Part shown: piece by piece, positions 57,810-64,000 of the stretch
Numbering within the stretch: position 1 is the first letter of the stretch
Layout: each line of letters opens with the position of its first letter
Assembly (NCBI RefSeq): GCF_027604915.1
Contig: NZ_JAJAQC010000003.1
Span: 186,001 to 250,000 of the forward strand
Direction of reading: 5' to 3'
Origin: Streptomonospora mangrovi
GTDB taxonomy: Bacteria > Actinomycetota > Actinomycetes > Streptosporangiales > Streptosporangiaceae
Length of the DNA stretch: 64,000 nucleotides
Program-made: the position numbers and the translations under genes
Notes under the pieces: model-generated
Database searches by the model: none
Seen by the model: only the letters and a program-made list of their open reading frames with translations
What the model was told of the DNA's origin: nothing

Positions 57810-58376
57810 ATGGTCGAGTTCGTCCGGGCCTGGATCATCGGCGCGGTGTCGTGGTTCATGCTCACCAACATCGGCGCGCTGGCGTTCCGCCTCCTCGCCC
57901 CGCCCGAGCACACGCAGAGCTTCGGCTGGGCGCTGCTGTGGCTGGGCGGGATCGGGTTCGCCGCCTACTTCCTGACCGTGGTGGCCACCGCCCTGGTCCA
58001 CCGGGCCCCCGACCGCCACGACCTCGGCCGCAACGCCCTGGCGGTCCTCCCGGCCCCGGTGGTGGGGAGCTCGGTCGACACGGGCCGCCTGCTGGCGGGC
58101 ACGGGCGTGAACTGGCCGCTGTACGCGAGCTGGACGGCCATCGCCCTGGTGGGCGCGGTGCTGGCCTTCCTGCTGATGCGCCGCCTCCAGCGCCCCGCCG
58201 TCGTCGAGGCGGAGACAGGCGCCCGCGTCCGCGTCCCCAAGACCTACTGGGACCGCACCGACGCCGGCTCGCCCGAAGACGCGACCGCACCGGACGAGCC
58301 CTCATCTCCCGCCGAGCCGGAAGAACAGACCCCCACCCCCAACCCGACCCCCGACTCGACACCCACCCCGGACTGA
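57810..58376 (+). CDS. Small integral membrane protein with Pro/Thr-rich tail
   Basis: The 188-residue protein has four predicted membrane helices in the first 130 residues (VRAWIIGAVSWFMLTNIGAL; WALLWLGGIGFAAYFLTVVA; a weak third segment around residue 75; and SWTAIALVGAVLAFLLM). A cytoplasmic or surface tail rich in Pro, Thr, Glu and Asp follows (ending TPTPNPTPDSTPTPD). ATG 57810 follows GGAGGG closely. I do not recognise the family. Its first two helices and the following HRAPDRHD match the protein encoded convergently at 58733-59206, so the two are paralogues. Confidence 0.7.
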   Translation: MVEFVRAWIIGAVSWFMLTNIGALAFRLLAPPEHTQSFGWALLWLGGIGFAAYFLTVVATALVHRAPDRHDLGRNALAVLPAPVVGSSVDTGRLLAGTGVNWPLYASWTAIALVGAVLAFLLMRRLQRPAVVEAETGARVRVPKTYWDRTDAGSPEDATAPDEPSSPAEPEEQTPTPNPTPDSTPTPD

Positions 58377-58732: not shown

Positions 58733-59206
58733 TCACGGTGTGCGTCCGGGGAGCGGTGGCCGGGCGGCCGCGGACAGGCGGGCGCCTGCGGCGCTGCCGA
58801 GGGCGAGTGCGCTGAGGGCCACGGCGGCGGCGACGGCGTCGGCCGTCCCGGCTCCGCCGGGGCCGGTGGCATGTGCGGTGATCTCAGCGACCGCCCCCAC
58901 GCCCGGCACCGCCAGGGCCGCCGCGAGGCGGCGGCCGCGGCGGTCGCGGTGGGGACGGGGATGCGCGAGTCCACCGGCGAAGGCCACCAGGGCGTAGCCG
59001 ACGAGCGTGGTACACCCGATCCAGGCCAGCCTGCCCGGCGACTCCGCCAGGGCACCGGGCGGCAGCCAGGCCAGGTGCGCCGCGGCGCCGGCCACCGCCC
59101 ACCCCGTCCACACCGCCGCCCCGACCGCCCAGGCGCGCAGCAGATCAAGCAAACCGTCCTCCTCGTGTTCGTGTTCGTGTTCGTCGTGGGTCGTGGTCGT
59201 GGCCAT
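58733..59206 (-). CDS. Small integral membrane protein with His/Glu-rich N-terminus
   Basis: The 157-residue protein begins with a His/Glu-rich cytoplasmic segment (MATTTTHDEHEHEHEEDG) that may bind metal. Four hydrophobic segments follow: LLRAWAVGAAVWTGWAVAG, LAWIGCTTLVGYALVAFAG, a region around residue 95, and a final Ala-rich helix. The RAW-[IV]GA-x-W and WIG/WLGG-x5-Y phrases, and the HPRPHRD after helix two, align with the protein at 57810-58376. Function unknown. ATG 59206. Confidence 0.65.
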   Translation of the reverse strand: MATTTTHDEHEHEHEEDGLLDLLRAWAVGAAVWTGWAVAGAAAHLAWLPPGALAESPGRLAWIGCTTLVGYALVAFAGGLAHPRPHRDRRGRRLAAALAVPGVGAVAEITAHATGPGGAGTADAVAAAVALSALALGSAAGARLSAAARPPLPGRTP

Positions 59207-59276: not shown

Positions 59277-60893
59277 TCAGTCGGTGCATGCCGTCAGGGG
59301 GACGAGGTCGCGGCGGCCCTCGCCATCGGGTGCGCCGAGGTAGCGGGCGCCGGTGGCGGTGCGGGAGACCGACTCCCATCCCGTCGAGCCGCCGAAGGCC
59401 CATCCGGCGAGGACGGCGTCGGCGGTGAACTCCCTGCCATCCGTGTCGACGGCGTACCGGACGGTGCTGTAGGTGGCCTCGGCGTGCAGCAGCCGGTCGA
59501 AGTCGCTGACCGGCACGCCGCTATCCCCGCCTCCACCGGCGTCGGTGCCGGCGCCCTGGTCGACCCGCGGGTCGGTGACGTCCTTGGGGCGGCCGGTGGT
59601 GGAGAGGAAGGACAGGGCGAGCAGCGGCTCCCCGCCCTCCAGCCAGGCGCGGACGGTCGCGCGGTTGGCGTCGGTGACCTTCAGGCGTGCCGTGCCCTCC
59701 GTCTGGCCGTGCTCGTCCTCGGCGTTGACGACCTGGATGGCGACCTCGGTCAGGCGCCCCGTCCGCCGGTCCCGGGTGGTGGTGAGGGCGGCGCTGACGA
59801 GCCGGTCGCTGGCGTTTTCGGGGGTGAGGACGGAACGCGGCACCAGGCGGCCGACCTCACCGGCCTCCTCGAAGGTGAACCCCACGGTCTCGGCTACGGT
59901 GCCGCGCCGCTCGTCGATCTCGCGGGAGACGTGCCCGCTGCCCTCGGCGCTCGCGGACACCAGGTGCAGCAGGTCCACGCCGCTGGCGACACCCTGCCCG
60001 CCCGGGCGCGGGTCGGCCCCGTCGGCGGAGGGGGCGGCCGGGCCACCCGCGCCGCCCGCGTCGGAGCGGTCGGGGTGGCCGGGGCGGCGCCCGCGCCCGC
60101 CCAGCGTGGCGCCCAGGTCTCCCGTGAGCCGCAGGCCGCCGTCGACCACGACCGCGCGGCGGTCGGGCGGGGGCAGGGCGCCGGTCCCGCCGCCGGTGCC
60201 GGCGCCGCCGCCGCCGGTGCCGGCACCGGCGCCGCCGCCTCCCAGGTGCTCCTCCAGCAGGCCGATGATCTGGGCGCCCACCGCGTCGAAGGCGCCGCTG
60301 TCCTCGGTCAGTTCCGCCAGGTGGACCGACCGGGCCACACGTTCGCGGAAGTCGGCGGCGGCGCGGCGGTCGGCGAGGGTCCAGGTCTCGACCGCCGTCA
60401 CTCCGCCGCGCACGCCCGCCGCGATACCGGCGTCGACCTCGGCGAGGTGCCCGACGCCGACGCCCCAGCGGAAGGGGCTCGGCAGGTCCGCGGCGGCGTC
60501 GAAGCCCCGGGCGAGGCTGACCTCCACGGTGCCGTCGGAGCTGACCCGCTCGGCGATCCGGACCTTGCCGCCGGGGGACACGGCCACAGAGACGCCGGTG
60601 GCCGCCGTCATGGCGGAGGAGCCGGTGGTGCAGCCCTGCGGGCGGAAGGCGGCGTCGCGGTCGGCGGCGGCGGAGTCGGCCGCGGCCGCGCCTGCGCCCG
60701 CGCCGCAGTCCGCGAGCCGCAGGACGGCGCAGACGGCGCGCTCGACCTCCGCCAGGACGCGCCGGCCGGGTTCCGTCGAGCCGGCCACGCCGATGAGCCC
60801 GACGGCCGCGCCCGCGACCAGGGCGACGACACCCGCGTACTCCAGAATTGCCCCGCCGCGCTCGGCACGGAGGGGTCGGCGGCACAGTGCCAT
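59277..60893 (-). CDS. Large uncharacterised protein with Flp/TadE-type prepilin leader
   Basis: The 538-residue protein starts MALCRRPLRAERGGAILEYA. A basic leader is followed by RG-GAILEY, with Glu five residues after the putative cleavage Gly, and a single hydrophobic helix AGVVALVAGAAVGLIG: the class III (Flp/TadE) prepilin pattern. The rest (about residues 60-538) is a secreted domain with no recognised fold. It contains a low-complexity Gly/Ala/Thr linker around residues 220-245 and a second Gly/Asp/Ala linker near 445. Five cysteines are visible, one at the very end. I prefer ATG 60893 to an earlier in-frame Met at 60968. It is the last gene of a minus-strand surface cluster. Confidence 0.75.
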   Translation of the reverse strand: MALCRRPLRAERGGAILEYAGVVALVAGAAVGLIGVAGSTEPGRRVLAEVERAVCAVLRLADCGAGAGAAAADSAAADRDAAFRPQGCTTGSSAMTAATGVSVAVSPGGKVRIAERVSSDGTVEVSLARGFDAAADLPSPFRWGVGVGHLAEVDAGIAAGVRGGVTAVETWTLADRRAAADFRERVARSVHLAELTEDSGAFDAVGAQIIGLLEEHLGGGGAGAGTGGGGAGTGGGTGALPPPDRRAVVVDGGLRLTGDLGATLGGRGRRPGHPDRSDAGGAGGPAAPSADGADPRPGGQGVASGVDLLHLVSASAEGSGHVSREIDERRGTVAETVGFTFEEAGEVGRLVPRSVLTPENASDRLVSAALTTTRDRRTGRLTEVAIQVVNAEDEHGQTEGTARLKVTDANRATVRAWLEGGEPLLALSFLSTTGRPKDVTDPRVDQGAGTDAGGGGDSGVPVSDFDRLLHAEATYSTVRYAVDTDGREFTADAVLAGWAFGGSTGWESVSRTATGARYLGAPDGEGRRDLVPLTACTD

Positions 60894-61053
60894 GGCAAGC
60901 CTCGCAAAGACAACGACCGCGGCAGGTGCGGTCGGGAACAGTGCGGTCAGGCCGGAGGAGCCAGGCACAGGTCGGCGGCGCGATCACCGCACAGCCGCGC
61001 GGGGACGATGCCGGGCACGCCGTCACAGCGGGCGGCGGGGCTGGGCATCGGTG

Positions 61054-61905
61054 CTAGGGCGCGGTCACCGTCTCGTCGGTGCTCCAGTCGGTCAGGGTCA
61101 GGGCGAACCAGCGGTTCTGCAAGCCCGTGCGGTCGGGCGGAAGGTGCTGGTAGTACACGAGCGGCCGGTTGGCGTCGTCCACCCACAGTTCGACGTCGAC
61201 GGCGGCCTCGCCGAGGCCCATGTCGACCAGGGTGGTGTACTCGCTCCGGGCGAAGCCGACCGCGTGCTCCCGGAGATCGTCGATGTAGGCGGTTCCGCGC
61301 CAGTGCGCGGTGGGGGTGCCGTGGACCTCGACCGCGTCCACGAGGCGGAGGTCGGTGCTGACGGCCAGCGCGGCCGTGATGTGCGAGCAGTTGGCGCCGC
61401 GCGCGGCGGTGAGGTCCGGCAGGTAGTCGGAGGGGACGTCGGCGGCGCGGTAGTCGTCGCCCAGGGGCCAGAAGTCGCCGCCGGAGGCGCTGTGCAGGCC
61501 GTCGTCGGTGGCGACCGATCCGCTGGCCTGGACGTCGGCGGCGGAGGTCTCGTCGCCGTCGTAGTCGCGGCCGGGGACGAAGTCGGGCTCCAGCACGTAG
61601 CGCGTCGCGTCGCCCTCGACGCGGTAGACGCCCGAGCCGTCGCCCGAGCAGCTCAGCCGCCCGCTGTTGAGGACGGCCATGCCGCTGCTGTCGAAGCTCT
61701 GCAACCGCCACGCCGCGGAGTCCTCGGCGTCGAGCGCGGCGGTGACGGCGTCGGCCAGCTCGGTCCGGTCGGAGGCGTCGCCCGGGGTGGGCACGGCCGA
61801 GCCCTGCGGCTCAGGCGCCCCGGAGGCACCCACGCAGGCGGACAGCGCCGCGACGCACACCGCCGCCGCCGTGCCGGCGACCACCCGCCGCACCACGCGC
61901 GCCAC
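61054..61905 (-). CDS. Uncharacterised lipoprotein
   Basis: The 283-residue protein has a signal peptide ending in the lipobox ALSAC near residue 22, after a basic VARVVRRV start. The mature part is acidic, with a run of short strands (RLSCSGDGSGVYRVEGDATRY, AADVQASGSVATDD) and a C-terminal half containing VDVELWVDDANRPLVYYQHL, which recalls the LppX/LprG-like lipoprotein fold (DUF1396-like) only in outline. GTG 61905 follows AAAGGCG at seven bases. It lies between the two prepilin-leader genes on the same strand and should be anchored on the outer face of the membrane. Confidence 0.75.
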   Translation of the reverse strand: MARVVRRVVAGTAAAVCVAALSACVGASGAPEPQGSAVPTPGDASDRTELADAVTAALDAEDSAAWRLQSFDSSGMAVLNSGRLSCSGDGSGVYRVEGDATRYVLEPDFVPGRDYDGDETSAADVQASGSVATDDGLHSASGGDFWPLGDDYRAADVPSDYLPDLTAARGANCSHITAALAVSTDLRLVDAVEVHGTPTAHWRGTAYIDDLREHAVGFARSEYTTLVDMGLGEAAVDVELWVDDANRPLVYYQHLPPDRTGLQNRWFALTLTDWSTDETVTAP

Positions 61906-61997
61906 AATCGCGCCTTTCAACGCGTCTGCCGCGGCCACCGCAGTTCCGCCCACACACACACTCAGTCCGCGTATCCCGCGCATCCCACGTACCGCAC

Positions 61998-62660
61998 TCA
62001 CCCTTGCGGCACCCGCGCCTGCCCGACCCACAGCGACTCCCAGTGCGGGTTGCCGATCACCTGGGTGACGTTGACCGGGTTGCCGGCGTGCACCATCTGC
62101 CCGTTGCCGATGTACATGCCGACGTGCGTGGGCGGCTCCATCTCGGGCATGGTGTGGAAGAAGATCAGGTCGCCGGGCTGGAGTTCGCCCTTGGAGATGT
62201 TGGGCAGCGCCGCGATCTGGTCCCAGGTTGTCCGCGGAATACTCACCCCGGCCTCGCGCCACGCCTCCATCATCAGCGAGGAGCAGTCATACCCGCTGCG
62301 CCCCGTGGCCCCCCAGATGTACGGCTTCCCCTGCTGAGCCAACGCGAACGCCACCGCCACCCGCGCGTCCCCCTCGCCGCGAACCTCCCCGTCCCAGGTA
62401 CTGGAGAAGGTCCACACATACTCCTCAGGCTCCTCGGGCCGCTCATGCTCGACCCAGCTCTCACCCCCGCACTCGGGCCCCTCAACGCGACACACGTAGT
62501 CGCGGGTCGCATCGTGCAGCACATCGGCGATGGAGGAGGACGAAAGCCCGATCACGACCACAGCGGCAATGGAAACAAGAGCCGCCGTCTCCATAATCGA
62601 GGCCCCACGATCCCCCCGCCGCCCCCCAACCCGAGCCAACGGCGTCACGAACTTCCCCAC
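61998..62660 (-). CDS. NlpC/P60 (C40) peptidase with prepilin-like N-terminus
   Basis: The 220-residue protein combines two parts. Residues 1-45 have a basic leader, RG-ASIMET with Glu at position five after the Gly, and the helix AALVSIAAVVVIGL: a class III prepilin pattern. Residues about 100-218 are an NlpC/P60 domain with catalytic Cys in GRSGYDCSSLMMEAW, PGDLIFFH, the His in THVGMYIGNGQMVHAGN and the usual spacing. Such domains cleave D-Glu-meso-DAP bonds in peptidoglycan. Tethering one to a pseudopilin leader is unusual. The gene is 20 bases downstream of a secreted-protein gene in an apparent operon. Confidence 0.88.
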   Translation of the reverse strand: MGKFVTPLARVGGRRGDRGASIMETAALVSIAAVVVIGLSSSSIADVLHDATRDYVCRVEGPECGGESWVEHERPEEPEEYVWTFSSTWDGEVRGEGDARVAVAFALAQQGKPYIWGATGRSGYDCSSLMMEAWREAGVSIPRTTWDQIAALPNISKGELQPGDLIFFHTMPEMEPPTHVGMYIGNGQMVHAGNPVNVTQVIGNPHWESLWVGQARVPQG

Positions 62661-62680
62661 CGGACCACTCCTTATCCGCC

Positions 62681-63250
62681 TCAGCCGACCGGGACGTCGT
62701 CGATCGGGTCAAAACCGGGGATCTCGACCGACACAGTGGTGGTGTCGGAGGGCACCCGGTAGGTCGTCCAGTAATCAGTGCTCTGGTTCGGCTCGATAAG
62801 CGGGTCATAGGGGGAGAGCGAGACGTACCCCGAGCAGAGGCAATTAGTTTCGGCGTCGATCAGCGGGTGGTGCCTGGTACTCGATGAGTTGTCGAGTAGA
62901 GTGACGCCGCTGAGGTGGGTGTGCCGATAGTCATAAACGGGATTTGAGAAGTTGTTGGCGTGAATGTTTTCCGTCCCGTTGTTGGTGATGCGTACCGTAA
63001 GGACGGTGAGTTCGCTGCTTTCTGAGCGGGTTAGCTCCAGAACTTCCGCCGTCGCCTCCGAAACGTTCTCGAGGTCACCGTTGCTTGTGGCCGTGCCGAG
63101 CGTTTGCGAAGGAGAAGCCCCTGGTGAGGCATGGGAGCCCTCCGGCGGGGAGGGTGTGGTCGCAGTCGCCGAGGCGGTTGAGAAAGGAACAACGAGTAGC
63201 GGGACCGCGATCACCGTCCAGGCCAGGCAGTGCACAATATGGCGTTTCAT
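62681..63250 (-). CDS. Secreted uncharacterised protein, paralogue of the neighbouring OmpA protein's N-terminal domain
   Basis: The 189-residue protein has a Sec signal (MKRHIVHCLAWTVIAVPLL, cleavage near ASATA at about residue 30) and a Ser/Pro-rich linker. A beta-rich domain with a CLC motif (ETNCLCSGYVSLSP) follows. The VTLLDNSSSTRHHPLIDAET and terminal GFDPIDDVPVG phrases align with VTLID-like, KHLPLLYED, CYC and APPIMDIPLTD in the OmpA-domain protein upstream. I use ATG 63250, nine bases after AAGGAAG, instead of 63256. Only eight to fourteen bases separate it from the OmpA gene. Base composition is much lower in GC than the rest of the window. Function unknown. Confidence 0.75.
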   Translation of the reverse strand: MKRHIVHCLAWTVIAVPLLVVPFSTASATATTPSPPEGSHASPGASPSQTLGTATSNGDLENVSEATAEVLELTRSESSELTVLTVRITNNGTENIHANNFSNPVYDYRHTHLSGVTLLDNSSSTRHHPLIDAETNCLCSGYVSLSPYDPLIEPNQSTDYWTTYRVPSDTTTVSVEIPGFDPIDDVPVG

Positions 63251-63264
63251 ATTCATGTGCTTCC

Positions 63265-64000
63265 TTATTTCGCGAAGGTTATCGTGACCCGGCGGTTTTT
63301 CGATCTCCCCTCCTCGCTGTCATTGTTGGCAATGGGTTGACCGGAACCGTGACCTGCCACTTCATAGGAGATCCCATCCTTCTCCACGAGTTCGGCCAAA
63401 GCATCACGTACAGCTCGCGCCCGGTCTTCGGAAAGCGGGACGTTGACGCTGTCGTTCCCGGTGTTGTCGGTATGGCCCTCCACGCTGACTGTCTGTGCGG
63501 AGGAACCGTCGATCTCTCTGGCGACTTGCTGGATGACCTCTTCCGCGGCTTTGTCGAGAGCCGATTCGTTGGTCTCGAACAGAACGTCCGAAGAAAGGGA
63601 GATCGCGACCTCTTCGGAGGTCTCCTCGCGCGTGGAGTCATCCTCCAATCCTTCCTGGAGGCTGCGCACATCCCATATTTGCGGCGGAGAAAGCCCCTGG
63701 GCCGGTTCCTCGACCCTCTCACCTGGAGAGTCAGTCAGGGGAATGTCCATGATCGGGGGCGCCGCGTAGGACATGAAGATCATGTGCTTAACACCGTCGG
63801 GCGGAGCTGGGAACGCGACCCACGCTCGCACCGACTCGCCAGGTGCGAGGGAGGTGTTGTTCCAGGACTCGCAATAGCAGGTGCCATCCTCGTAGAGAAG
63901 GGGAAGATGTTTCTTGCTGTTGCTGCCGTCGATCAAGGTCAAGGACTGAAGATCACCCGGTTCGTCGCCTTCCTGCGGCGGTGAATAGATGGATACGGAT
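63265..64000 (-). CDS. OmpA-domain cell-surface protein (5' end beyond the window)
   Basis: The frame is open to the right edge, so at least 244 residues of the C-terminal part are visible. Nearest the edge is a beta domain with KKHLPLLYEDGTCYCES and APPIMDIPL. An acidic linker follows, then an OmpA C-like domain: ISLSSDVLFETNESAL, VSVEGHTDNTGND, LSEDRARAVRDAL, GHGSGQPIANN and GRSKNRRVTITF. This domain binds peptidoglycan non-covalently through the Asp and Arg of the TDNTGN and NRRV segments. Actinobacterial Tad loci often carry such a protein. It is first in the visible cluster, and stops eight to fourteen bases before the next gene. Confidence 0.85.
   Translation of the reverse strand, partial: SVSIYSPPQEGDEPGDLQSLTLIDGSNSKKHLPLLYEDGTCYCESWNNTSLAPGESVRAWVAFPAPPDGVKHMIFMSYAAPPIMDIPLTDSPGERVEEPAQGLSPPQIWDVRSLQEGLEDDSTREETSEEVAISLSSDVLFETNESALDKAAEEVIQQVAREIDGSSAQTVSVEGHTDNTGNDSVNVPLSEDRARAVRDALAELVEKDGISYEVAGHGSGQPIANNDSEEGRSKNRRVTITFAK

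What the first reader, a model, noticed from the sequence alone, without database searches (positions are those of the whole stretch)
59277..64000. Surface cluster pairing prepilin-type leaders with an NlpC/P60 peptidase, a lipoprotein and an OmpA-domain protein
Five consecutive minus-strand genes encode an OmpA-domain protein, a secreted paralogue of its N-terminal domain, a peptidoglycan peptidase and a large unknown protein that both begin with RG-xxxxE class III prepilin leaders, and a lipoprotein. Flp/TadE leaders are processed by prepilin peptidases, so the peptidase could be carried in or beside a pseudopilus to open the wall. That combination is not a standard annotation. The cluster runs off the right edge, where tad assembly genes would be expected.
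Basis: partly seen in the sequence, partly recalled or inferred. Interest (0 to 1): 0.72.

Follow-up and report, generated by a model that had tools for sequence, protein, structure and literature searches.

The report
Wall-cutting enzyme on a pilus stem
A bacterium related to Streptomonospora carries, inside its genes for a Tad adhesion pilus, a likely cell-wall-cutting enzyme built onto a pilus-subunit stem, and many relatives carry the same or another wall-enzyme domain on a pilin-like protein, which may explain how such pili get through a thick wall.

Summary
The NlpC/P60 protein has an Flp-like class III leader, an intact Cys-His-His site and a flexible linker. Full-length orthologues occur in 19 of 200 genomes of the order, own included; 18 of 19 lie in the tad locus, and those 18 keep Gly -1 and Glu +5. 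The unlinked copy lacks the Gly. At that place 41 of 200 others have a protein with the same stem (61-67% identical in the best pairs) but a lytic-transglycosylase (SLT) domain. Other relatives have NlpC/P60 or SLT fused to TadG. No genome was found with both leader forms. A 2025 paper says no peptidoglycan hydrolase has been reported with Tad pili (PMC12307814). Most likely: a minor Tad pilin carrying a hydrolase that opens the cell's own wall. Lipoprotein and 538-residue protein are lineage-specific extras. Processing, assembly and activity are not shown.

The parts
61998..62660 (-). Pilin-leader NlpC/P60 protein, 220 aa: leader about residues 1-20, helices 22-41 and 44-56, poorly ordered linker to about residue 88, NlpC/P60 domain about 98-217
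62538..62660 (-). Class III prepilin-type leader (Gly20, Glu25) and first hydrophobic helix
62283..62285 (-). Codon of the predicted catalytic Cys126 (with His179 at 62124-62126 and His191 at 62088-62090)
   Evidence: the role of these residues is recalled from the NlpC/P60 family
62681..63256 (-). Secreted paralogue of the OmpA protein's N-terminal domain (weak DUF5067 match, below cut-off)
63265..64000 (-). OmpA-domain protein; continues past the window edge to L009:10332 (355 aa)
61054..61905 (-). Lipoprotein, sub-cutoff match to SCO4651 family; accessory, in 4 of 17 other tad-linked loci
59277..60893 (-). 538-aa protein of unknown fold with a Flp-like N-terminus; the protein search found it only in Streptomonospora relatives and one unnamed source

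Best explanation
The NlpC/P60 gene belongs to a Tad (type IVc) pilus operon and encodes a modular minor pilin: an Flp-like stem that the prepilin peptidase trims and the membrane holds, joined by a flexible linker to a peptidoglycan endopeptidase. The Tad platform (TadA/B/C) takes it up at pilus initiation, or keeps it beside the assembly site, so that its enzyme opens the producing cell's own thick wall where the pilus emerges; the OmpA-domain protein and its paralogue would hold the machine to the wall. Shown by sequence: operon membership, leader conservation, intact catalytic residues, exchange of the enzyme domain on a constant stem, and fusion of wall-enzyme domains to TadG in relatives. 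Inferred: processing, uptake by the Tad machine, enzyme activity, own-wall target, role of the OmpA pair.
For: Complete tad operon contiguous with the gene. Full-length orthologue in 19 of 200 order genomes, own included, with a drop from 186 to 130 bits to domain-only hits; 18 of 19 in the tad locus, 17 of them in one gene order and L057 with TadG displaced. All 19 are among the 81 of 200 genomes with this TadA type. Gly -1 and Glu +5 in 18 of 18 linked copies; the single unlinked copy (L059) lacks the Gly. Same place, other enzyme: SLT on the same stem in 41 of 200, all 41 with this TadA; 34 on TadA's contig, same strand, about 7-37 kb away, 7 on other contigs. Stem identity 61-67% over about 70 aa in the six best pairs, E down to 1.5e-33. 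TadG joined to NlpC/P60 in 12 of 200 by search, 3 more by reading loci, to SLT in 2 (Pfam just below cut-off). No genome found with both leader forms (listings are capped); in 9 of the 19 NlpC genomes I read the best SLT hit and it was a plain secreted protein without this stem. Control: no wall-enzyme motif on a pilin stem in 20 tad loci of other families, both strands; the one SLT hit is an ordinary secreted protein 11.7 kb from TadA. Published Tad tip models show TadG with an exposed C-terminal modular domain (PMC12075869, passages).
Against: No experiment shows processing, assembly or activity. Tad loci of the other families tested lack such an enzyme by motif, so it is not generally required. 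In genus code g3 all 16 SLT copies read, of 30 found, lost the presumed catalytic Glu while keeping Gly -1 and Glu +5, so in that lineage binding may matter more than cutting. The stem helix is modelled with only modest confidence and no pilin head. A single-helix anchor without assembly would give much the same picture.
Confidence: 0.6

Rival explanations
1. The enzyme sits at the pilus tip and cuts the wall of another cell (competitor or prey), as part of a contact-dependent attack system; the same Tad system also presents toxins that carry pilin leaders.
For: In relatives, Flp-like leaders head proteins with PT-HINT plus Toxin-deaminase, calpain and alpha/beta-hydrolase domains downstream of tad. 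Myxococcus Kil, a Tad pilus, kills prey by contact and has modular tip pilins (PMC12075869, passages).
Against: The window's genome gave no match to the one HINT protein tried (an empty result proves little). Toxin-like proteins were seen only near some of the loci extended, while the wall-enzyme domain is in nearly all tad loci of the clade. The linker is only about 40 residues.
Confidence: 0.17
2. The protein is a membrane-anchored wall enzyme co-expressed with the pilus but never taken up by the Tad machine; the leader is only an anchor.
For: AlphaFold shows helix, disordered linker and enzyme without a pilin head. A membrane-bound enzyme could act beside the pilus base.
Against: Gly -1 and Glu +5 are kept across 18 of 18 linked copies, and a plain anchor needs neither. 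TadG, a pilin-like protein, carries the same enzyme families in other genera. Flp pilins themselves lack a globular sheet domain (PMC11067988, abstract in the listing).
Confidence: 0.17
3. Ordinary housekeeping NlpC/P60 enzyme that happens to lie beside tad.
For: The genome has 9 NlpC/P60 matches, and all 200 genomes have some match to the domain.
Against: Kept in the tad locus in 18 of 19 genomes, found only in genomes with this TadA among the 200, enzyme exchanged in place on the same stem.
Confidence: 0.03

Closest known systems
Tad (Flp, type IVc) pilus systems
   Same: TadA, TadB, TadC, TadZ, CpaB/RcpC, TadE, TadG and Flp genes in one operon
   Different: Carries a wall-hydrolase domain on a pilin stem; a 2025 paper states none reported with Tad pili (PMC12307814, passage). 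TadZ is fused to a TadE-like segment.
Modular type IV pilins (PilB of Streptococcus sanguinis)
   Same: Class III leader and helix fused to an unrelated functional module; peptidase modules S74 and M26 are mentioned there (PMC8179133, passages)
   Different: Here the stem is of Flp/Tad type, and the module is a peptidoglycan-hydrolase domain (NlpC/P60 or SLT). NlpC does not occur in that paper's main text.
Kil (Tad-like) tips of Myxococcus xanthus
   Same: Minor pilins with variable C-terminal modules on a Tad pilus (PMC12075869, passages)
   Different: The Kil module described in the passages seen has unknown function; here the modules are recognisable wall-enzyme domains. I did not look for a T3SS-like partner.
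Wall enzymes of other envelope-spanning machines (phage tail tips, specialised lytic transglycosylases of secretion systems; recalled)
   Same: Would work like them: a wall-cutting domain carried by the machine. Phage records match the window protein in part only (445 records, none covering 80% of it)
   Different: No match outside the enzyme domain in the rows shown.

Membership tests
Tad/Flp pilus operon | TadA ATPase, TadB and TadC platform, TadZ, CpaB, TadE/TadG, Flp pilin in one cluster | tested here: met
   the Flp gene matches PF04964 only at E 0.05, below cut-off, and is named by leader, size and place
Tad/Flp pilus operon | Prepilin peptidase in the genome | tested here: met
   one PF01478 match (28.3 bits, cut-off 26.5), not in the operon
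Type IV (class III) pilin | Leader ending in Gly, Glu at +5, then hydrophobic helix | tested here: met
   NlpC protein: 18 of 18 linked copies. The 538-aa protein: Gly 9 of 9, Glu 4 of 9
Type IV (class III) pilin | Cleaved by prepilin peptidase and polymerised | not testable with these tools
   needs experiment
NlpC/P60 (C40) peptidase | Domain match above cut-off and Cys-His-His site | tested here: met
   PF00877 88.1 bits (cut-off 23); C126, H179, H191 conserved, (site recalled from the family)
NlpC/P60 (C40) peptidase | Peptidoglycan endopeptidase activity | not testable with these tools
   needs assay
SLT lytic transglycosylase (the exchanged domain in relatives) | PF01464 match and catalytic Glu | tested here: inconclusive
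   two leader forms above cut-off (24.7 and 23.9, cut-off 21.3), a hand-shortened g3 form without match, TadG forms below cut-off; Glu kept in 12 of 12 loci read outside g3, lost in 16 of 16 read in g3

The most novel reading that the evidence does not exclude
In Streptosporangiales the Tad machine is a delivery device: interchangeable pilin-stem proteins carry wall-cutting enzymes to breach a wall and, in some genomes, pilin-stem polymorphic toxins (HINT-deaminase, calpain and others) that are presented or injected on contact, a trafficking route for polymorphic toxins not among those named in the standard survey.
Probability: 0.2. Interest if true: 0.92.

Novelty: new variant of a known kind. 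Interest (0 to 1): 0.77.

Why it matters
How a Tad pilus gets through peptidoglycan is open: the 2025 structural paper on its alignment complex notes that no peptidoglycan hydrolase or lytic transglycosylase has been reported with it (PMC12307814, passage). Here is a clade of monoderm bacteria in which the Tad operon itself encodes such a domain on a pilin stem, with two unrelated enzyme types exchanged on the same stem. That makes the question directly testable in culturable relatives such as Thermobifida fusca (named), and one genus offers a natural series in which the presumed catalytic residue is lost.

Tried and rejected
P538 structure: AlphaFold on 9 sequences gave mean pLDDT 41.7, too poor for a fold search, so its function stays open. 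Its homologue search gave 9 proteins (own included), with only the 7992 candidates sharing most words scored. Hypothesis that the association is general to actinobacterial Tad: not supported, 20 tad loci of other families (14 of one genus code, 6 of four other families; chosen by me from 69 matches among 394 genomes) had no wall-enzyme motif on a pilin stem on either strand within about 13 kb downstream; a divergent enzyme could be missed. One of those loci (L192) has a pilin-leader protein with what looks by eye like an SGNH-type esterase on the opposite strand, so enzyme domains on such stems are not confined to this order. The motif scan found a wall-enzyme motif in 36 of 45 loci (own order plus none of the controls; L059 and L114 left out); the 9 misses are L115 and L116 (cut short by contig ends), L124-L129 (g3: Glu lost or stretch too short) and L135 (its fusion lies outside the stretch). 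HINT protein in the window's own genome: no match. The SLT form has no sequence match among solved structures at E 0.01. The TadG C-terminal domain with the HxDHxHxS motif had no Pfam match; its PDB match is named only 'LysM domain-containing protein', and a paper search for those entry codes gave nothing useful. Phylogeny: on a quick tree of TadA/B/C/CpaB from 44 loci NlpC and SLT stems need at least 2 changes; the number of exchanges is not resolved further.
Full report
The window is contig 30, bases 186001-250000, of a genome whose nearest named protein relatives are Streptomonospora. I fetched the following stretch (L009; L009 coordinate = window coordinate minus 54000).

Anatomy. Gaps from Flp to NlpC are 8 to 63 bases by these coordinates, consistent with one operon. 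The prepilin peptidase is elsewhere: one PF01478 match, whose sequence has the motifs expected around its two aspartates (motif meaning recalled).

The NlpC protein. It reads GDR|GASIMETAALVSIAAVVVIGL at the N-terminus, against DK|GASILEYAAVIVLVAGVAVALL in the operon's own pilin. The AlphaFold model from 22 sequences (mean pLDDT 75.5) has a helix at 22-41 with modest confidence (block means 64-69), a second at 44-56, a poorly ordered linker to about residue 88, and a confident NlpC/P60 domain (block means 89-98). Cys126, His179 and His191 are kept; in the alignment Cys126 is missing only in P0020, which has a gap there. Solved NlpC/P60 enzymes match residues about 84-219 only.

Conservation. 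Searching 200 genomes of the order gave full-length matches (starting at residue 1-18) in 19, own included, with 186 bits or more, then a drop to 130 bits and to the domain alone. I fetched the surroundings of the 18 others. Seventeen (L042-L058) carry the gene in a tad locus with P522, CpaB, TadZ-E, TadA, TadB, TadC, TadG, OmpA, paralogue and NlpC on one strand; the order is the same in 16, while in L057 TadG follows the paralogue (Flp was not matched in every locus by that search). The eighteenth, G142, has the gene more than 3 Mb from its tad locus, and there the leader Gly is absent. With the window, 18 of 19 are linked; in all 18 Gly -1 and Glu +5 are present (L046).

Domain exchange. Tad loci without this gene were then read. 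After the OmpA/paralogue pair many encode a protein with the same stem and linker but a different enzyme domain, transglycosylase SLT. The stem modules are 61-67% identical over about 70 residues in the six best pairs, E down to 1.5e-33. By search, 41 of 200 genomes have the full-length SLT form (query start at residue 7 or before), and G012 has one cut at a contig start. Comparing places: 34 of 41 lie on TadA's contig on the same strand, about 7-37 kb away; 7 lie on other contigs. No genome was found in both lists; the listings are capped. As a check I read the best SLT hit of 9 of the 19 NlpC genomes (and one unrelated, G185): all 9 are plain secreted proteins without this stem.

Fusions to TadG. 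In other members of the order a wall-enzyme domain is joined to the C-terminus of TadG. NlpC/P60: 12 of 200 by search (five align to the end of the query, seven to about residue 333 of 389; 10 lie on TadA's strand within about 15 kb, one on the opposite strand, one on another contig), and three more on reading the loci (G112, G160, G180). SLT: G001 and G142 (scores just below Pfam's cut-off). G004 has a lysozyme-like segment by eye. G041 and G173 have another C-terminal domain ending in HFDHVHIS. That motif also occurs in 11 of the 12 SLT loci read outside g3, and in the three of them read in full it is on TadG. The function of that domain is not established; it matches a solved chain named LysM domain-containing protein, E 1e-13.

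Totals. TadA of this type (E at or below 1e-180) is in 81 of 200 genomes (tallied). Adding up: 19 leader-NlpC, 41 leader-SLT plus G012, 15 TadG-NlpC and G001 TadG-SLT make 77 of 81 with an NlpC/P60 or SLT domain on a pilin-type N-terminus; G004 by eye makes 78; G041 and G173 have only the unassigned domain; G084 could not be judged (contig of 8.3 kb). This is not a count of active enzymes, nor of full linkage: see the contig notes above, and G142's NlpC is unlinked. In genus code g3 the SLT form was read in 16 of 30 genomes, and all 16 have lost the Glu of the ESxW motif (recalled as the catalytic residue), while the leader Gly and Glu remain in 16 of 16. In the 12 loci read outside g3 all keep the Glu; there the leader Glu is at +5 in 10 and at +6 in two (L123, L134).

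Control. TadA at E 1e-150 or better was sought in 394 genomes of the class: 69 matched. I chose 20 loci from other families. All 20 show TadA, TadB and TadC, and 16 of 20 an OmpA hit. A motif scan found no wall enzyme on a pilin stem on either strand; the single hit (L177) is an ordinary secreted transglycosylase 11.7 kb from TadA. So the association looks like a feature of this order, not of Tad systems at large. One control locus (L192) has a pilin-leader protein with an esterase-like domain by eye, which shows that such stems carry other enzymes elsewhere.

Phylogeny. On a quick tree of TadA, TadB, TadC and CpaB from 44 loci the stem forms NlpC and SLT need at least two changes; the SLT form also occurs on the deeper branches.

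Mechanism. A single leader could be chance. A leader whose two processing residues persist while the residues around them change, a stem that stays while the enzyme is exchanged, and the same enzyme families joined to TadG in other genera together suggest that the wall domain travels with the Tad machine. Published models give TadG minor pilins a C-terminal modular domain in a tip complex (PMC12075869, passages seen), and modular pilins are a known principle (PMC8179133, passages). The thick wall of an actinomycete has to be crossed, so opening the cell's own wall is the simplest role. The loss of the catalytic Glu in g3 suggests that in one lineage wall binding can suffice, or that another enzyme has taken over.

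Rivals and the bolder reading. Downstream of several tad loci, mostly of the SLT type but also two of the NlpC type (L147, L152), are proteins with Flp-like leaders, acidic linkers and variable ends, on either strand. In L137 Pfam gives PT-HINT with Toxin-deaminase, calpain, and Abhydrolase_8 in three of the four scanned; the fourth had no match. These look like polymorphic toxins on pilin stems. I made no count against distance from tad. The standard survey of polymorphic toxins has no occurrence of pilin or pilus in the held text (first 300,000 of 357,715 characters) and names other export routes. If such proteins are loaded by the same machine, the wall enzymes could serve delivery. I put this at 0.2.

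What is in print. Searches for NlpC, peptidoglycan hydrolase, Flp or Tad pili and for polymorphic toxins with Tad or prepilin terms brought no paper on wall hydrolases encoded in tad operons in the rows listed; I judged by titles, abstracts and a few passages. PMC12307814 states that none has been reported (passage). Most subscription papers, and bioRxiv preprints, are not in the library.

The lipoprotein is in 4 of 17 and the 538-aa protein directly downstream in 6 of 17 other tad-linked loci, so they are extras. Other large proteins with Flp-like leaders occur near tad in other genera; the 538-aa protein itself has no confident fold.

Noticed in passing
L137:2019-19900, also L138-L140, L143-L147, L152 (downstream of tad in relatives): Proteins with Flp-type class III leaders, acidic linkers and variable C-terminal ends, several with HINT-like domains by eye; Pfam confirmed PT-HINT with Toxin-deaminase, calpain and Abhydrolase_8 in three of four scanned from L137: polymorphic-toxin-like proteins on pilin stems.
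   Followed up: partly
L009:15126-16775 and relatives' loci L042-L058: TadZ ATPase fused to a C-terminal TadE-like segment with its own leader motif (GDS|GALFVEF), aligned nearly end to end in 16 of 17 loci; Pfam did not recognise the TadE part.
   Followed up: partly
L124, L125, L161-L174 (genus code g3): SLT domain on the pilin stem has lost the presumed catalytic Glu in 16 of 16 copies read, with the leader kept; TadG was not matched in L124 and L125.
   Followed up: partly
L108, L118, L121 and other SLT-type loci; L155, L159: TadG carries a C-terminal domain with an HxDHxHxS motif, no Pfam match, PDB match 9flh (E 1e-13).
   Followed up: partly
L059 (genome G142): NlpC copy away from tad has lost the leader Gly; the same genome has TadG-SLT at its tad locus.
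   Followed up: partly
L192, minus strand in the oriented stretch, about 11170: In a control family, a pilin-leader protein whose body looks by eye like an SGNH-type esterase.
   Followed up: no
L050:9149-10363: A sensor-kinase-like gene by eye between TadC and Flp in a relative's locus; no room for it at that place in the window's genome.
   Followed up: no
window 58733-59206 and 57810-58376: Two small membrane-protein-like ORFs on opposite strands next to the cluster; in several relatives both hit nearly the same place, so they are probably related to each other.
   Followed up: no
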